From the NCBI GenBank assembly GCA_013044195.1, contig JABEUV010000004.1, positions 1 to 40,897 of the forward strand: a DNA stretch of 40,897 bases, read 5' to 3'. This DNA is from Elusimicrobiota bacterium (GTDB lineage Bacteria > Elusimicrobiota > Elusimicrobia > UBA1565 > UBA9628). The translations under genes and the position numbers were made by a program. Each line of letters begins with the position of its first letter. Position 1 is the first letter of the stretch. Below, in pieces: positions 6,001 through 27,861 of the stretch. The notes beneath the pieces were generated by a model that saw only the letters and a list, made by a program, of their open reading frames with translations, was not told the origin of the DNA and searched no databases.

Positions 6001-7602
6001 TCAGCCGCGCAGCGCCGCGACGAACTCGTCGGCCGGCGCCACGCGCGAGAAGCCCTGCGCCAGGCTGCGCAGCGCGCCCAGATGGAGCGCCTCGTCGTGC
6101 GCGACGGTCGCGTCGGCGGCCACGAAGGTGCGAAAGCCGCGGTCGAAGGCGGAGCGCGCCGTGGATTCGACGCACAGGTTCGTGGCCAGGCCGCACAGCA
6201 CCAAATCCTCCACGCCGGCCGCGCGCAGGCACGCCGCCAAGCGCGGGTTGGAGAACGCGCTGTAGCGGGTCTTGCGCACGACCGTCTCGCCCGGCCGCGG
6301 CGCAAGCGCCTCGGCCACGCGGGACTCCGGGCGGCCGTCGCGGCAGACCTTCGCCCACCAGCCCGCCATCAGGCCCCCGTCGCGCGCCGGGTCGCGGTGC
6401 GCGTGGCGCACGAACAGCACCGGCCGACCGGCCGCGCGAAAAGCGTGAAGCAGGCGCACGGCCCCGGCCACGGCGGCGCGCGACTGCGGCAGATACGCGG
6501 GAGAATTGCGGTCGACGAAATAATCCAGAAGATCGACGACGAGCAGTCCCGCCTTGCCCGGGCGCAGCGGCTCGCCGCGCGTCTTGAAGCGAGAAATATC
6601 CGCCATCCAGCGCCGCGACATTTCCGGCATCGTGTCGGGGGAGACGTAGCACTCGCGTTCCAGGCGCTCCGCGCGCAGGCCGGCGCGGGCCTCGTCGCGC
6701 AGGACGTCCGACCACACCTGGCCGCACAACGTCGCCGCCGTACCTTCCTCAACAGAACTGGGAGACAGGATCACGGTAAATCCGCGCGCGCGCAGGTCCG
6801 CGGCCGCCGCCGCGATATCGGCCGGAGGCCGGCGCCACGACCGCGCGCTGGCGCTCGCCTCGGCGGCGCGCGTGGCATCGACGGCCGCGATCTTGATCAA
6901 GAAACGCTCCGCATCGAACGTCCGCGCCACCGCCTCGGCGTCAAGCGGCTGGTCGCAAGACAGCGCGAAGTTCAGCGTCACCTTGCGGTCGCCCGGCCGC
7001 CACCAGCGCCGCCCGAAGTCGGCCACGCGTTCCAGCGACCACGGCCGCGCGCGCATGACGCGCCGCCGCGCGGCCTCGTCGGTGGAATGCACGGAGAACT
7101 GCAGCTGGAAGCGCCCGCCGCCGTAGAGGCGGTCCTTGACTACGCGCATCTCCTCCAGGCACGCCGCGGCCGTCGGCGTGTCGGGAGCCACCGTGGAGAC
7201 CGCGGGCAGCAGGCCCGGCCCGCCCCACTCGGCGGCCAGACGCTCCAGCGCCCGCGGCGTCGCGTCATTGAGCGTCGGCTCTCCCATCCGCGCGAAGTGA
7301 ACCTTGAACTTCGGATGGCGGCGCGCGTCCAGCGCCGGGTTGTCGCGGACCGCGCGGCGGACCTGTGCCACGATCTCGGCGGCCGTCAGGTTGCCGCGCC
7401 AGCCGACGATTCCGCCGTCGCACATGCGGCAGCCGATGACGCAGCCGACCTGGGTGGATATTCTCAGCACCCATTTGTCCGCCTTCGCAACGCCGGGCGC
7501 CGTCGTGTCCACGAACTCGATCAGGCGCTCCCGGGCTCCGGACACCCGTGCCAGGTACAGCCGCCCCAGCGCGCCGATATCGCGCGTCGCCACTACCTTC
7601 AT
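6001..7602 (-). CDS. Fusion: RlmN/Cfr-like radical SAM domain + isochorismatase-type hydrolase domain
   Basis: The protein is 533 residues counting from the ATG at 7602; a TTG at 7620 is possible, and neither has a Shine-Dalgarno. Residues 1-310 match the RlmN/Cfr rRNA or tRNA adenosine C2/C8 methyltransferase core. The 4Fe-4S motif STQVGCxxxCxxC lies at C54/C58/C61. ARMGEP corresponds to GMGEP, SVHSTDEAARRRVM to the SLHA..R..(I/M)MP region, and TLCGQV holds the equivalent of the methyl-carrying cysteine (C293). The RlmN resolving cysteine 7 residues before the first cluster cysteine is an Arg here, and the N-terminal accessory domain is short. Residues 350-533 are an isochorismatase-like cysteine hydrolase with a complete triad: D357 (LLVVDLLDYF), K444 (VVRKTRYSAF) and C477 (GLATNLCVEST). 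The gene follows the giant fusion by 42 bp on the same strand and is probably co-transcribed. Neither substrate is known. Confidence 0.8.
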   Translation of the reverse strand: MKVVATRDIGALGRLYLARVSGARERLIEFVDTTAPGVAKADKWVLRISTQVGCVIGCRMCDGGIVGWRGNLTAAEIVAQVRRAVRDNPALDARRHPKFKVHFARMGEPTLNDATPRALERLAAEWGGPGLLPAVSTVAPDTPTAAACLEEMRVVKDRLYGGGRFQLQFSVHSTDEAARRRVMRARPWSLERVADFGRRWWRPGDRKVTLNFALSCDQPLDAEAVARTFDAERFLIKIAAVDATRAAEASASARSWRRPPADIAAAAADLRARGFTVILSPSSVEEGTAATLCGQVWSDVLRDEARAGLRAERLERECYVSPDTMPEMSRRWMADISRFKTRGEPLRPGKAGLLVVDLLDYFVDRNSPAYLPQSRAAVAGAVRLLHAFRAAGRPVLFVRHAHRDPARDGGLMAGWWAKVCRDGRPESRVAEALAPRPGETVVRKTRYSAFSNPRLAACLRAAGVEDLVLCGLATNLCVESTARSAFDRGFRTFVAADATVAHDEALHLGALRSLAQGFSRVAPADEFVAALRG

Positions 7603-7644: not shown

Positions 7645-10600
7645 CTAGCGGCCGGAGGCCTGGATCGCGGCGGCCAGGCGGGCGAAGAGTTCCTGCGTGG
7701 CGTCCTGGTTGCGGACCGAGGACTGCACCACGTTGGGCTGGGTCTTGTCCCAGCTCTTGCCGACGGAGACCGCCAGCGCGCCGGGCAGGGCCTGCGCCAT
7801 GAACAGGTCGTTGCCCTCGGGCTTGAAGTCGTCGCCGAAGATCAGCACCTGGCTCTCGTCCTGCACCACGCCGCGCGCCTTCAGGATTTCGAACGCCTTC
7901 TTAGCACCAGTGCCCTTGTTCGCCTTGAAGTATTGGACGTAGGGAACCTTGTTCTCGCGCATGGTCGGGTAGGGCTTGAGCTGGACCAGGTAGCCGAAGC
8001 CGTCGCGCGCGTTGATCTGAGCGACGGCGTCGTAGAGCTCTTTCTCGCGCTCAATATGGTTGCGCAGTTCGATCAGCGAGCGGCTGTCCTCTTGGTAGAT
8101 CTTGTAGTCGCCGGGCGCCAGACCGATGGAGCGCGCGGCTTCCTCGAAGGCGGGCACGATTTTCTCATTCTCGGCCTCGGTGAAGCCGACTTCCTTCCAG
8201 GTCGGCGACTCGCGCGTCGGCGAGACGCCGGCGCCGTCATATTCATAGATGCGCGCGCCGGACTGGACCACATACATCATGTCCGCGCGCGTCCGGGGCG
8301 TCAGGCGGTCGCCCAAAAGGTTCGTCATGCCGTTGTGGTCGCCGGTGAAGAAGTGATTGGTCGAGATCACCACGCGCACGCCGGCGTCGTGCAGGGCCTG
8401 GATCAAGGCCGCCAGCCGCTCGCTGGCGACCACGGCCTTGTCGTCCGCATTCTTGTTCATCAAGGTGCCGTCGTAGTCCGTGATGACGACCTTGACGCCC
8501 TTCGCGGCCACGCGCGCGGCGATGCGCGCGGAAATCTGGTCCAGGGTCTCCGGCTGCGTCGCGGGCGCCGCCGACGCGTCCGTCTTGAACAAAGTCGGGG
8601 CCAAGCGCGCGCCCAGCTTGCGCGGCGCGGCCCACAGCAAAGCGCCGACCACCAAGAACATCCCCACCATCGGCCACAGCGCCGTGGGGAAGGCCGGATG
8701 GAACGCGCCGGCCAGCGCGCCGAAAGCCGCGTAGCCGAACGCGGCGGCGATGGAGCTCAGCGCGGAGCGCGCGCCCAGAATCTTGCCCGTGTGCGCCGCG
8801 TCGGCGCGGGCCTCGCCCTGCATGATGGTGTCGATGGCGATCTTGTTGGGCACGCTGACCAAGCCCACCAAGGCCAGGCTCAGCAGGAAGGCCGGCACGC
8901 TGCCCCAGAACGCCAGCGGCAATCCCAGCGCGGCCAGGCCCACGAAGGCGAAGCGCATCCAGCCGCGATCGGTGAGCTTGCGCGCGGCCGCGTCGAAGGC
9001 GAGTGCTACCGCCGTGCCCGCCGCCGCCGCGATCAGGTTATGAGGGAACAGCGAGAACGCCAGCCACGCGCCGAGCGTACCCAATGTGCCCGCGCGCACC
9101 GCCGTGTTCCAGCGTCCCGGCAGGCGGAGCAGAGACGAGGTCGCCAGCATCTGGCCGAAGAACAGCGCGCCCTGCAGGCGGCCCTGCAGAAGTCCGCCGC
9201 CGTTCAAATCGCGCGAGGCGAAGGGCACCAAAATGGACTGGACCGGGAAGACCACCAGCGCATACAGCGACCCCAGCACCGCGCCGGAGCGCAGCACCGA
9301 GCTTTTCCAGATGCGCTTGAGCCCCTCGGAGGTGGCGGCCAGACCCAGCAGCGACGCGCCGACCAGCGGCAAGGTCGCGAACTGCGGCGCGACGGAGTGC
9401 AGCACCGCGTAGAGCGCGGCACCCGCGCCCAGCAGACCGCCCCAGATCAGCGCGTCGCGACCGCGACCGGACGCCTGCGGCGCGGCCTCGGCCGAGGGGG
9501 CCGCGACGGCCGGACCGGCGACGCGCACGTTGGGAAGCGTGAACCACTGCACGGCCAGGCCCGCCGCGGCCAGTGCCGCGTTGACCGCGAACACGGCCGA
9601 CAGCCCCGGCAAAAGTCCCAGGTGCGCCGTCAGGCCGTCGATCCAGCTCCCCGCGGACAGGAACAGACCCAGCGCCACGTTGAGGCCGATGAAATTCAGG
9701 TTCGCCGCCGCGTTGAGCGCGGACAGGCGCTTGGCGTCGCCGCCCGCCAGCGCCGGCAGGATCTTGTCCTCGGCGATAAGAGAACTGGACACGTTCCAGC
9801 TGGTGACCAGCGCCACGGCCAGCAAAGGCCAGAAGCCGGCCGTGCCCGTGGCCACCAGCGCGGGCAGGGCCAGCGCCGTGATTAGGCGCACCACGTTATT
9901 GATCGCGAAGGAGTTTCTCTGGCTGAAGCGCTGGGCGATCACGCCGCTAACCGAGGAGAGCAGGATGCCGGCCAGCGCGCCCAAGGACATCAGGTCCGCG
10001 TAGCCTTGATGGCCGACCAAGGCCTGCGCGAAGATCGGATAAGCGATGGTGCCCGCCAGCACGTAGCCGGCCAGATACAGCGTGCGTCCCGCCAGCCAGC
10101 CGATCGTCGCGCGGCGGCGCGCCGCGGCGTCCAGACCCGCGACCTCGGGGCCGGCGGCGGCGGCGTTCAGGTCGGAGAGGCGGGTCGCGCCTTTGAGCAG
10201 CGCGCGGAACAGGCTCCACTGCGCACGCTCCCCGCGCGTCGGCGCGTCCGGGCGGGAGCGGTCGGCGTAGCGGTCCGGCGGAGGGCTAAGCGCGCGCTCC
10301 AGGCGGTCCTCGCCGGCCAGCACCAGGAACGGGTCGTGGTGGATCTTCAGCAGGAAAGAAGCCGAAGGGTAAAACGCGAACTCGGCGGCGTTGAGCGGGT
10401 GCGCGCGGGACTGCGGATCGGCGCTCCAGGATTTCTCCAGGCGCGCCAGGAACGCCGGCACGCGGCGCGAGCGCCCGTCGGCCGTCAGCACGTGCAGGTC
10501 GAAATCGCTCTTGGCCGTGGCCGCGCCGATGGCGAAGCTGCCCAGCACCACCACGCCCACCACGCGGTCGGGCGCGGCCGCGTCCTCGCCGCGCAGGGCG

Positions 10601-12573
10601 TCGCGCACGGCGGCGCGGAACGCCGCGATGGACGCCGCCTGCTCCTCGTGCTGGTAGGTCTCGGCCGAATCGTTGACGACGGGCAGCATCAAGCCCGCGA
10701 AGTAGCCCGCCAGCGCCTCGGCGGGCATCAGCGAGGCCGCGTGCAGGGCCTTGCGGATGTGCTTGCGCAGGTTGCTGTGGCTGCGCTTGGGGTTGTAGAG
10801 CTTGGCGCGCTCCAAGAATTCCGCGAAGGCCGCGCGCGCCGCGTCCCCCGTGCCGGAGAAGTACAGATCGTAAAGGCGCAGAGCCTCGCGGGTCACGTAG
10901 GCGTCGGAGCCTGAGCGCGAGCCCACGGTCTTCGTCCCGCCGATCATCCCCATCAGGCGCGTGTCCACGAAGAAGCCGCGCTCGTCCTTCACCAGGAGTT
11001 CCGGACGCTGCGCGCGCGCCGCCGCGCGGGCCGCGCGGTACTCGCGCCAATTCTCCACGTTGACGTCGAAGAAATAGTGCCGGCACGACTTCACCCAGAG
11101 CGTCGCCCAGCCCAGGAACTCGCGCACGCCGCGCCAGAAGCCGGAGGCCTCCCCGGCCATGCGCGAAGCCACCGACAGCAGAACGCGGCGCGAGGCGGCG
11201 GGGCCGCTTTCGCCCAGAACGAACAGGTTGGCGCGGCGCGCGTCGCCCGTGCCGCCCACCGACAAGGTCAGCGCGCCGGGCAGGGCCTTCTGCATCTCCG
11301 CGTCGCTGGCGTTGCCAAAAGCGGGAAGCGTGCGGCCGCTGACGTTGCGGGCCAGACGGGCCAGGCCGCCGAAGCGCGCGCCTTCGCGCGGGGCATACAT
11401 GCCGTCGCCCAGCGTCACCACGTCGCGCGCCGTCAGCCCGCGCTCCTGGGCGATAAAGCGCGCCGCACTCGCCTTCGTATTGACGGTCAGCGTGACGTAA
11501 GGAGGGTTGGCGGGATCCTTGGCGAAGCGCGCCTTGACCGTCAGGCCCGCGCCGCGCCGGTCCAGCTCAACCTGGAGCAGCGACGCCGCCCCGCGCAGTT
11601 GGTCCGGCGTGGAACCGACCTGCAGGCGCAAGGTGTAGGTGTAAGGACCCCACGCGTCCGCGCCCACGTCGCCCGCCAAAGAGGAGAATGCCCGCGCGCC
11701 GACTTCCGGAAAGCGCGCCCGCGCCGCGTCGGCGGCCGCGCCGACCACGGCCTTGACCGCGTCGGACATGGGCGGTTCCTGATGGACCAGCGCCGCCGCT
11801 TGGCCCGCGTCGTCGTAGCGGTAGACCCGGCCGCCCGCGTCCACGGCCACATACATCCCCGCCCGCGCGGCGGGCGGCAAGGTCGACAAAGCGTCCAGCA
11901 CGCTCTCCGGGCGGTCGCTGATCACGTCCACGGTCTTGCCCGCGGCGCGCACCGCTTCGACGGCTTCCACCATGTCCGGCGGCAGGCGGTGATCGAAGGC
12001 GGCGTTGGACTGGGCCAGGGTCTCGTCGAAATCGGACAGCACCGCGCGGCGGTCGGCCGCGGCGGCGATGAGGCGGTCGCTCAGCGCCGGACCGGCCGGG
12101 CGCAGGCTGAAGACGGTCCCGGTCAGGACCGCCGCGACTTTCAGCAGGAGCGCGTGGGCTTTATACGCCGCGAGAGATTGGATCGGCGCCGCGGCGTCGA
12201 CGGACGGCGCGGCCGGTGCGGCGGCCGGCGCGGCCGCGGCGGACGGGCGCGCGTCGTGGCCGGATTCGGCGGGGGCCGCCGCCGCCGGCAAGGCCGGTGC
12301 GGGAAAGGCGACCGCGGCCGAGACGGAAGGCGCCGCGGCGGCCGAAACGGAGAGCGACGGCGCGGCCAGGGGTGCCGCGACCGGCCCCAGCGCGGACGGC
12401 GACAACGCCAGGCCGGACGGGACGGTTCGAGGAACGCTCAAGACCGCCGTTTCGGCGACCGGAGCGCTCTCCAGAGCGGCGGCAAAAAGACGCGGCGCTT
12501 CCAGTCCCGGCGACAGCAGGATGAGAGCGAGGCAGAGTATCGAGGCGACCAGGCTTCGAGCTCGATCGATCAT
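7645..12573 (-). CDS. Giant exported/membrane fusion: HAD phosphatase - nucleotidyltransferase - MFS transporter - HAD phosphatase
   Basis: About 1642 residues. Positions below count from the ATG at 12582; the ATG three codons later (12573) is preferred because TACAAT overlaps the first ATG. The N-terminus is hydrophobic (12-25, signal peptide or anchor), followed by about 110 Ala/Pro/Val/Ser-rich residues. HAD domain 1 has DFDET (184-188) and LGDGMY (391-396), the C2-capped phosphatase pattern of the trehalose/sucrose-phosphate phosphatase type. A helical region follows. At 681-696 come GSFAIG and SDFDL, the minimal nucleotidyltransferase (Pol-beta) signature. Residues 829-1320 form 10 to 12 hydrophobic helices in two bundles, MFS-like. 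HAD domain 2 has DYDGT (1369-1373) and FGDDxxxEGND (1582-1592). Both HAD domains end in ALPGALxxSVG, so they look duplicated. A single open frame without frameshift supports one polypeptide. Role unknown; a sugar- or lipid-phosphate pathway is only a guess. Confidence 0.85.
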   Translation of the reverse strand: MIDRARSLVASILCLALILLSPGLEAPRLFAAALESAPVAETAVLSVPRTVPSGLALSPSALGPVAAPLAAPSLSVSAAAAPSVSAAVAFPAPALPAAAAPAESGHDARPSAAAAPAAAPAAPSVDAAAPIQSLAAYKAHALLLKVAAVLTGTVFSLRPAGPALSDRLIAAAADRRAVLSDFDETLAQSNAAFDHRLPPDMVEAVEAVRAAGKTVDVISDRPESVLDALSTLPPAARAGMYVAVDAGGRVYRYDDAGQAAALVHQEPPMSDAVKAVVGAAADAARARFPEVGARAFSSLAGDVGADAWGPYTYTLRLQVGSTPDQLRGAASLLQVELDRRGAGLTVKARFAKDPANPPYVTLTVNTKASAARFIAQERGLTARDVVTLGDGMYAPREGARFGGLARLARNVSGRTLPAFGNASDAEMQKALPGALTLSVGGTGDARRANLFVLGESGPAASRRVLLSVASRMAGEASGFWRGVREFLGWATLWVKSCRHYFFDVNVENWREYRAARAAARAQRPELLVKDERGFFVDTRLMGMIGGTKTVGSRSGSDAYVTREALRLYDLYFSGTGDAARAAFAEFLERAKLYNPKRSHSNLRKHIRKALHAASLMPAEALAGYFAGLMLPVVNDSAETYQHEEQAASIAAFRAAVRDALRGEDAAAPDRVVGVVVLGSFAIGAATAKSDFDLHVLTADGRSRRVPAFLARLEKSWSADPQSRAHPLNAAEFAFYPSASFLLKIHHDPFLVLAGEDRLERALSPPPDRYADRSRPDAPTRGERAQWSLFRALLKGATRLSDLNAAAAGPEVAGLDAAARRRATIGWLAGRTLYLAGYVLAGTIAYPIFAQALVGHQGYADLMSLGALAGILLSSVSGVIAQRFSQRNSFAINNVVRLITALALPALVATGTAGFWPLLAVALVTSWNVSSSLIAEDKILPALAGGDAKRLSALNAAANLNFIGLNVALGLFLSAGSWIDGLTAHLGLLPGLSAVFAVNAALAAAGLAVQWFTLPNVRVAGPAVAAPSAEAAPQASGRGRDALIWGGLLGAGAALYAVLHSVAPQFATLPLVGASLLGLAATSEGLKRIWKSSVLRSGAVLGSLYALVVFPVQSILVPFASRDLNGGGLLQGRLQGALFFGQMLATSSLLRLPGRWNTAVRAGTLGTLGAWLAFSLFPHNLIAAAAGTAVALAFDAAARKLTDRGWMRFAFVGLAALGLPLAFWGSVPAFLLSLALVGLVSVPNKIAIDTIMQGEARADAAHTGKILGARSALSSIAAAFGYAAFGALAGAFHPAFPTALWPMVGMFLVVGALLWAAPRKLGARLAPTLFKTDASAAPATQPETLDQISARIAARVAAKGVKVVITDYDGTLMNKNADDKAVVASERLAALIQALHDAGVRVVISTNHFFTGDHNGMTNLLGDRLTPRTRADMMYVVQSGARIYEYDGAGVSPTRESPTWKEVGFTEAENEKIVPAFEEAARSIGLAPGDYKIYQEDSRSLIELRNHIEREKELYDAVAQINARDGFGYLVQLKPYPTMRENKVPYVQYFKANKGTGAKKAFEILKARGVVQDESQVLIFGDDFKPEGNDLFMAQALPGALAVSVGKSWDKTQPNVVQSSVRNQDATQELFARLAAAIQASGR

Positions 12574-12589
12574 CACTTCCATTGTATCG
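12574..12589 (-). promoter_or_regulatory. -10 box for a leaderless start of the giant fusion gene
   Basis: On the minus strand TACAAT is followed by 7 nt (GGAAGTG) and then the ATG at 12573. The upstream alternative ATG at 12582 is formed by the last bases of the -10 box itself. A weak -35 (GTGGTG) lies 18 nt upstream. Confidence 0.4.
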
Positions 12590-27260: not shown

Positions 27261-27288
27261 GGCGCCCGCCGCGCCCAGGAGAATGAAT

Positions 27289-27861
27289 ATGAACCTCGAC
27301 CCCCGCAAAACCGCCGTGCTTGGACTGGATCTTCAGCAAGGCATCTTCGGCTTCGTGCCCGGCGCCGCGGCGTGCGTGCCCGCCGCGGCCCGCGCCTTCG
27401 ACGCCGCCCGAAAGGCGGGCGCCCGCGTCCTTCACGTGGGGCTCGGCTTCGAGCCCGGCTATCCGGAGATCAGCCCCCGCCACCCGCGCTTCTCCATGCT
27501 CAAGGAGCGCGGCGTTTTCCTCAAGGGCTCCGATTCGGTCAAGTTCCATCCGGACGTGTTTCGCCCCGGAGAGACCGTCGTCTACAAGCACCGCGTCAGC
27601 GCCTTCGCCGGCAACTCCCTACACATGATCCTGCGCGCGCAAGGCGTCGAAAACCTGGTGCTGTTCGGCATCGCGACCAGCGGCATCGTCCTGTCGACCC
27701 TGCGCGCGGCCAGCGACCTGGACTTCCGCTGCGTCGTCGTCAAGGACGCCTGCTACGACGCCGACCCGGAGGTTCACCGCGTGCTCACCGAAAAGGTCTT
27801 CGCCGCCCAGGCGGAGGTCGTCGCCGCCGACGCGCTGGCCGCCGCGTTTCGCCCCGACTGA
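27289..27861 (+). CDS. Isochorismatase-like hydrolase family protein lacking the catalytic cysteine
   Basis: The protein is 190 residues from the ATG at 27289, which has AGGAG 7 nt upstream; the ATG at 27283 is too close to it. The isochorismatase fold is shown by the Asp motif VLGLDLQQG, the Lys motif VVYKHRVSAF and the segment FGIATSGIVLSTLRAA. In nicotinamidase-like members that last segment has Cys where Gly is found here. Several subgroups, including true isochorismatases, also have Gly, so the protein may be active by a non-cysteine mechanism or act on another substrate. It is divergent from marR across the palindromic operator, so it may be under MarR control and linked to detoxification along with the exporter. 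Confidence 0.85.
   Translation: MNLDPRKTAVLGLDLQQGIFGFVPGAAACVPAAARAFDAARKAGARVLHVGLGFEPGYPEISPRHPRFSMLKERGVFLKGSDSVKFHPDVFRPGETVVYKHRVSAFAGNSLHMILRAQGVENLVLFGIATSGIVLSTLRAASDLDFRCVVVKDACYDADPEVHRVLTEKVFAAQAEVVAADALAAAFRPD

What the first reader, a model, noticed from the sequence alone, without database searches (positions are those of the whole stretch)
6001..7602. Radical SAM (RlmN/Cfr-like) domain fused to an isochorismatase-type hydrolase, with the resolving cysteine replaced
The radical SAM half keeps the 4Fe-4S cysteines and the methyl-carrier cysteine (C293, in LCGQV). It has Arg where RlmN and Cfr have the cysteine that resolves the protein-substrate bond. That change should block the known methyl-transfer cycle, so the chemistry may be new. 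The hydrolase half has a full Asp-Lys-Cys triad, and a fusion of the two families is unfamiliar to me.
Basis: partly seen in the sequence, partly recalled or inferred. Interest (0 to 1): 0.72.

Follow-up and report, generated by a model that had tools for sequence, protein, structure and literature searches.

The report
RlmN-like radical SAM–amidase fusion enzyme
This gene encodes a real, conserved but uncharacterised enzyme that joins a relative of the ribosome-methylating enzyme RlmN to an amidase; the whole family, and a sister family in phages, has lost one of RlmN's two catalytic cysteines while keeping the other, so it probably does a different reaction on a different target.

Summary
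Window 6001-7602 (-) encodes one 533-aa protein: residues 1-316 fold like RlmN without its N-terminal RNA-binding domain, residues 345-533 are an isochorismatase-superfamily cysteine hydrolase. The CxxxCxxC and carrier-like C293 are present, and Arg47 stands where RlmN has resolving C118. The fusion is not an artefact: the rSAM family occurs in 52 of 340 Elusimicrobiota genomes, mostly as this fusion, sometimes as adjacent genes. The loss of the resolving cysteine is family-wide: 0 of 48 bacterial and 0 of 80 phage relatives have Cys there, while C293 is kept in every row that covers it. The usual residue is Met (Thr in phages); Arg occurs only in this copy and its 94% sibling. In most relatives a CxxC-less, thioredoxin-reductase-like flavoprotein lies just upstream; this genome has lost it, and its copy has drifted at other conserved sites, yet stays under purifying selection (dN/dS 0.18). 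Best reading: a non-RNA branch of the RlmN/Cfr superfamily that probably keeps the methyl-cysteine first half-reaction, acts on an unknown small molecule, and resolves its adduct without C118. Substrate unknown. New variant of a known kind.

The parts
6001..7602 (-). Bifunctional CDS, 533 aa (ATG 7602, stop 6001): RlmN-like radical SAM module fused to a cysteine hydrolase
6655..7602 (-). RlmN-like radical SAM module, residues 1-316; no N-terminal RNA-binding domain
   Evidence: VIA Z 27.8 to RlmN 80-375; TIGR00048 profile 99-352
7516..7518 (-). Glu29, invariant (48/48); candidate equivalent of the RlmN E105 base
   Evidence: equivalence inferred from motif and strand position, not measured
7462..7464 (-). 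Arg47, at the position of the RlmN resolving Cys118; Met in most relatives
7420..7443 (-). CxxxCxxC 4Fe-4S motif (C54, C58, C61), followed by the family-specific Asp62
6871..6894 (-). KIAAVDAT: degenerate here; family KITPVNPT, matching a conserved N in RlmN
6724..6726 (-). Cys293, position of the RlmN methyl-carrier Cys355; Cys in every row covering it
6571..6654 (-). Interdomain linker (residues 317-344); spacing C293 to hydrolase start is 56 residues in most fusions
6004..6570 (-). Isochorismatase-superfamily cysteine hydrolase domain (residues 345-533), triad D357 / K444 / C477

Best explanation
A bifunctional enzyme from an unnamed branch of the RlmN/Cfr superfamily that has left RNA for a small molecule. 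The rSAM module binds SAM at its 4Fe-4S cluster and, as in RlmN, probably first methylates C293; 5'-deoxyadenosyl radical then makes the Cys-CH2 radical, which adds to the substrate. There is no C118, so the adduct is released another way: by a different base, by the substrate itself, or by electrons from the partner flavoprotein. In most relatives that partner is a CxxC-less, TrxR-like FAD/NAD(P) protein encoded just upstream, probably an electron donor like TrxR-like FNRs. The fused hydrolase then cleaves (or first prepares) a carboxamide or ureide bond of the same compound. Shown: architecture, conservation, operon and co-occurrence. Inferred: each chemical step. Unknown: substrate and product. 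This copy is a derived, flavoprotein-less branch that must use another reductant and may act on a shifted substrate.
For: Fold and cofactor motifs. C293, CxxxCxxC and GEP kept in the rows that cover them while the C118 column is never Cys in 48 bacterial and 80 phage relatives. RNA-binding N-terminus absent, and the genome has its own true RlmN above cut-off. Shared family-specific residues D62, R105, P140, Q168, N211, K237, T239, against other residues in RlmN. Tree separates RlmN by a long, fully supported branch. Hydrolase physically linked by fusion or neighbouring genes, including hydrolase-flavoprotein-rSAM runs in L049, L050, L183. Flavoprotein in 42 of 52 family genomes and in none of 288 others; CxxC absent, FAD and NAD(P) motifs kept; TrxR-like FNRs without CxxC are known electron-transfer proteins (PMC10294844). 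The residue-47 change goes with flavoprotein loss. Purifying selection here: dN/dS 0.18, rSAM 0.17, hydrolase 0.12.
Against: No assay and no known substrate. C293 retention does not prove methyl-Cys chemistry; it could be an H-atom donor. Neighbour genes beyond the flavoprotein differ between lineages (B12-rSAM, MoaA-like rSAM, tyrosine phenol-lyase family, CoA operon) and point to no single pathway. Phage relatives lack the hydrolase fusion and the flavoprotein, so those parts are not needed for the core reaction. The flavoprotein profile was built from genes next to the family, so the co-occurrence figure is partly circular (lowest family score 271 bits, next 258), although positions confirm adjacency. 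E29 = E105 rests on motif position only.
Confidence: 0.42

Rival explanations
1. C293 no longer carries methyl. The rSAM module abstracts H directly from the substrate with 5'-dAdo radical, and C293 acts as an H-atom donor or radical relay, as the conserved Cys does in spore photoproduct lyase; the product is a redox or rearrangement product.
For: A Cys that finishes a radical reaction by giving an H atom is known for spore photoproduct lyase (PMC9692996). Loss of C118 removes half of the class A machinery; R105 replaces a Gly beside the GEP motif in all 128 relatives, so the active site is remodelled.
Against: The carrier loop CGQ/CGN, the following Gly and the candidate base E29 are kept, more than a lone H donor should need.
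Confidence: 0.3
2. It is an RNA methylase after all, with a different resolving residue, and the hydrolase is an unrelated passenger.
For: Closest characterised sequences and folds are RlmN and Cfr. Phage sisters sometimes lie near a tRNA-His guanylyltransferase-like gene.
Against: No N-terminal RNA-binding domain; separate true RlmN in the genome; hydrolase and flavoprotein coupling conserved across the phylum; C118 is essential in RlmN and its counterpart in Cfr (PMC9692996).
Confidence: 0.08
3. In this genus the rSAM half is a degenerate remnant and only the hydrolase still acts.
For: This copy and its sibling lost the flavoprotein genome-wide, changed Met47 to Arg, TPVNP to AAVDA, and S292 to L; two other flavoprotein-less lineages and a paralogue also changed residue 47.
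Against: rSAM half dN/dS 0.17, close to the hydrolase half (0.12); cluster cysteines, GEP, E29, R105 and C293 all intact.
Confidence: 0.15
4. The system serves pantothenate/CoA metabolism: rSAM, flavoprotein and hydrolase act on a pantothenate-pathway compound.
For: In several genomes of one family the flavoprotein and fusion genes directly follow DUF2520-panB-panC-coaC-coaB-coaX-panD; in the distant G132 a DUF2520-panB-panC-coaC-coaB-panD cluster lies about 4.5 kb away.
Against: Most lineages, including this window, have no CoA genes nearby; the window genome's panB is on another contig.
Confidence: 0.1

Closest known systems
RlmN (23S rRNA/tRNA adenine-C2 methyltransferase), class A radical SAM methylase; PDB 5HR7, 3RFA, 6FZ6
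   Same: Barrel fold (Z 27.8), CxxxCxxC, GEP, carrier Cys in CGQ, candidate E105 equivalent
   Different: No resolving Cys, no N-terminal RNA-binding domain, R105/D62/Q168/K237 replace RlmN residues, fused hydrolase, flavoprotein partner
Cfr (23S rRNA adenine-C8 methyltransferase); PDB 9P0P
   Same: Weak profile similarity over the rSAM core (1.2e-7 to 1.4e-8); carrier Cys kept
   Different: Cfr keeps its resolving C105; far below Cfr model cut-offs
phrog_24834 phage radical SAM family (function unknown), e.g. Bacteroides phage Versailles WAK79139.1
   Same: Same signature: no Cys at the C118 site (Thr), D62, R105, P140, Q168, N211, K237, T239, Cys293; joins the Elusimicrobiota stand-alone forms in the tree
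   Different: No fused hydrolase and no flavoprotein next door; His at 242, CGN instead of CGQ; variable neighbours (DNA methylase, MetK, nicotinamidase and NAPRT in some)
Isochorismatase-superfamily cysteine hydrolases: NicF (3UAO), PSPPH_2384 (3IRV), RutB, N-carbamoylsarcosine amidohydrolase
   Same: Fold, Asp-Lys-Cys triad
   Different: Fused to an rSAM module; family-conserved W416 and C420; substrate unknown
[quoted passage not shown]
   Same: TrxR fold without CxxC, FAD and NAD(P) motifs
   Different: By profile and fold nearer to true TrxR than to described FNRs; restricted to this gene neighbourhood; absent from the window genome

Membership tests
RlmN/Cfr class A radical SAM methylases | Radical SAM CxxxCxxC motif and RlmN-type barrel | tested here: met
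RlmN/Cfr class A radical SAM methylases | Methyl-carrier Cys (C355/C338) | tested here: met
   C293 present in every row covering it, (presence only; methylation not testable)
RlmN/Cfr class A radical SAM methylases | Second, resolving Cys (C118/C105) | tested here: not met
   Arg here; Met/Thr/Leu/Trp in relatives, never Cys; no other conserved Cys in the rSAM half
RlmN/Cfr class A radical SAM methylases | N-terminal RNA-recognition domain of RlmN | tested here: not met
   Model aligns to RlmN from residue 80 only; profile from 99
RlmN/Cfr class A radical SAM methylases | NCBIfam RlmN or Cfr model cut-off | tested here: not met
   55.9 bits against 290; 34.5 against 530
RlmN/Cfr class A radical SAM methylases | Methylation of A2503 or tRNA A37 | not testable with these tools
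   needs biochemistry
Isochorismatase-superfamily cysteine hydrolases (PF00857) | Pfam domain above gathering score | tested here: met
   151.4 bits against 27
Isochorismatase-superfamily cysteine hydrolases (PF00857) | Asp-Lys-Cys triad | tested here: met
   D357 42/42, K444 41/42, C477 40/42
Isochorismatase-superfamily cysteine hydrolases (PF00857) | Amide or ureide hydrolysis | not testable with these tools
   substrate unknown
Thioredoxin reductase (upstream gene of relatives) | Redox-active CxxC | tested here: not met
TrxR-like FNR (upstream gene of relatives) | TrxR fold, FAD and NAD(P) motifs, no CxxC | tested here: met
TrxR-like FNR (upstream gene of relatives) | Electron transfer to ferredoxin, flavodoxin or an rSAM cluster | not testable with these tools
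   needs assay

The most novel reading that the evidence does not exclude
A new subclass of methyl-cysteine radical SAM enzymes, spread through Elusimicrobiota and phages, that has moved from RNA to another substrate and completes Cys-CH2 transfer without a resolving cysteine. In the bacterial form a dedicated flavoprotein and an amidase complete the reaction on a small molecule, so the covalent adduct that is a dead end in RlmN C118A becomes a productive intermediate.
Probability: 0.3. Interest if true: 0.85.

Novelty: new variant of a known kind. Interest (0 to 1): 0.64.

Why it matters
In RlmN and Cfr the resolving cysteine is essential; without it the enzyme stays stuck to its substrate. 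A conserved family that keeps the carrier cysteine but never has the resolver would be a natural case in which that step is done differently or the cysteine has a new job. It offers a testable system (rSAM + flavoprotein + amidase, one operon) for how class A radical chemistry can be retargeted away from RNA, and it gives a first handle on a large unannotated phage family (phrog_24834).

Tried and rejected
Sequencing error or split gene: rejected, fusion conserved in >30 genomes. Another Cys replacing C118: only 54, 58, 61, 293 (rSAM) and 420, 477 (hydrolase) are widely conserved; C148 and C216 are private to this branch or this copy, C318 is found in about a third of rows. C420 lies in the hydrolase, which phage relatives lack. 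Family beyond Elusimicrobiota in cellular genomes: the single genome-contig scan, a single-sequence query, returned Elusimicrobiota titles except one titled only 'bacterium'; plasmid hits were canonical or annotated RlmN where checked; other phyla could not be scanned, so phylum restriction is not claimed. Of the annotated phage hits checked, Versailles has the Thr signature, Arash has Cys and Moorella phage has Gly at the site. Neighbour-based pathway: B12-rSAM-STAS, MoaA-like rSAM, SPASM rSAMs and tyrosine phenol-lyase each occur in subsets only. NAD link in phages (nicotinamidase-like gene + NAPRT in L108/109, 131, 132, 142) is suggestive, but those phage hydrolases do not match ours by blastp. 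Literature: no held paper pairs RlmN with isochorismatase; 'radical SAM + isochorismatase + fusion' gave only incidental hits.

Full report
Observation. The ORF at 6001-7602 on the minus strand is intact and codes for 533 aa. Pfam and NCBIfam find an isochorismatase domain in the C-terminal half (3.6e-44) and weak RlmN/Cfr similarity in the N-terminal half, well under the curated cut-offs. AlphaFold2 on 43 family sequences gave a confident model (pLDDT 93.7, pTM 0.85). Residues 1-316 superpose on E. coli RlmN residues 80-375 (Z 27.8, 278 aligned, rmsd 3.2) and 337-532 on maleamate amidohydrolase NicF (Z 27.5). The RNA-binding N-terminus of RlmN is therefore absent.

Active-site residues. In a joint alignment of 48 bacterial family members, 80 phage relatives and 9 RlmN-type proteins, the column of the RlmN resolving cysteine is Cys in 9/9 RlmN, never Cys in the bacterial family (39 Met, 3 Thr, 2 Arg, 2 Trp among the four commonest) and Thr in 80/80 phage rows. 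The carrier cysteine is Cys in all 48, all 9 and 79 of 80 rows (one row has a gap there). D62, R105, P140, Q168, N211, K237 and T239 mark the family and the phage group against RlmN. The window's Arg47 occurs only here and in its 94%-identical sibling. No other cysteine of the rSAM half is widely conserved. E29 is invariant in the bacterial family and lies in an IEFVD motif resembling the VETV motif that holds RlmN's E105; most phage rows carry a similar LEFL-type motif. That equivalence is inferred from motif and position; the automatic alignment did not place the two glutamates in one column. E105 deprotonates the carrier Cys, and C118 is essential as base or resolver, according to the review PMC9692996.

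A family, and its spread. Searching 340 Elusimicrobiota genomes with the family profile gives a clear gap: the rSAM family scores about 330 bits or more in 52 genomes, while RlmN-type matches stay below 100 bits (one diverged paralogue in G044 scores 238). Most are fusions with the same 56-residue spacing between carrier Cys and hydrolase start, 31-40 in some lineages. In others the two halves are separate neighbouring genes (L043, L045, L049, L050, L051, L183), and in L044 they lie about 6 kb apart. A tree separates RlmN by a long branch with full support and places the stand-alone bacterial forms L049, L050 and L183 with the phage clade (support 98). The phage proteins belong to phrog_24834, function unknown.

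Operon. A TrxR-like flavoprotein gene lies immediately upstream of the rSAM gene in nearly every locus with enough flank. It keeps FAD and NAD(P) motifs but has no CxxC and folds like TrxR. Proteins of that type without CxxC act as NAD(P)H:ferredoxin/flavodoxin oxidoreductases (PMC10294844). Phylum-wide, 42 genomes have it, all among the 52 with the rSAM family; because the profile was trained on these neighbours the statistic is partly circular, but the positions are independent support. Of the ten without a hit, G008 and G063 have incomplete family genes, G015 and G043 have a partial flavoprotein gene cut by a contig end, and six lack it: the window genome G000, its sibling G017, G032, G036 (only 62% complete), G046 and G051.

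This copy is derived. Apart from Arg47, the window protein and its sibling replace KITPVNPT by KIAAVDAT and S292 by Leu. Among rows whose lineage or paralogue lacks the flavoprotein, 6 of 7 have a residue other than Met at position 47; among the other rows, 38 of 41 have Met, and the three exceptions are the stand-alone forms. Rows are not independent; these correspond to about four losses plus one paralogue. dN/dS between window and sibling is 0.18 (rSAM 0.17, hydrolase 0.12), so the gene is not decaying freely.

Mechanism. Retention of the first half of the class A machinery (cluster, carrier loop, candidate base) together with family-wide loss of the resolver, loss of the RNA-binding domain, and strict coupling to a flavoprotein and an amidase argues for a small-molecule enzyme in which a Cys-CH2 adduct is made and resolved differently. 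The main rival is that C293 has become an H-atom donor. Neither can be decided from sequence. The substrate is unknown. Pathway hints disagree: a CoA operon directly upstream in one bacterial family and a pan/coa cluster nearby in the distant G132, tyrosine phenol-lyase family genes and B12-rSAM genes in others, nicotinamidase-like and nicotinate phosphoribosyltransferase genes near some phage forms.

Verdict. What matters is a new, widespread, uncharacterised branch of the RlmN/Cfr superfamily lacking the resolving cysteine, and the window holds one of its more derived members.

Noticed in passing
window 7645-12582 (-): 1645-aa ORF just upstream of the finding, with a weak HAD-like hydrolase match near residue 1366 and, from reading the sequence, an MFS-like membrane segment between two HAD-like parts.
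   Followed up: partly
window 27283-27861 (+): A second, stand-alone isochorismatase-family protein (192 aa, PF00857 1.5e-31) in the same window.
   Followed up: partly
L090-L169, L172: Phage radical SAM family phrog_24834, with Thr at the RlmN C118 site; some lie near DNA methyltransferases, SAM synthetase, nicotinamidase-like, nicotinate phosphoribosyltransferase or Thg1-like genes.
   Followed up: partly
L046 1147-8182 and homologous loci L040, L047, L185-L188: CoA operon DUF2520-panB-panC-coaC-coaB-coaX-panD directly followed by the flavoprotein and fusion genes; DUF2520 stands at the head of the cluster where a PanE-type reductase would be expected (inference).
   Followed up: partly
L061 7034-9016 and about 9 other loci: B12-binding radical SAM protein with a C-terminal STAS domain, often next to the fusion gene.
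   Followed up: no
L055 2795-4201: Tyrosine phenol-lyase/tryptophanase family gene near the fusion in several genomes (L051, L054, L055, L057, L194).
   Followed up: no
L053 6142-7446: Diverged second copy of the radical SAM module without hydrolase in a genome that also has the normal fusion.
   Followed up: no
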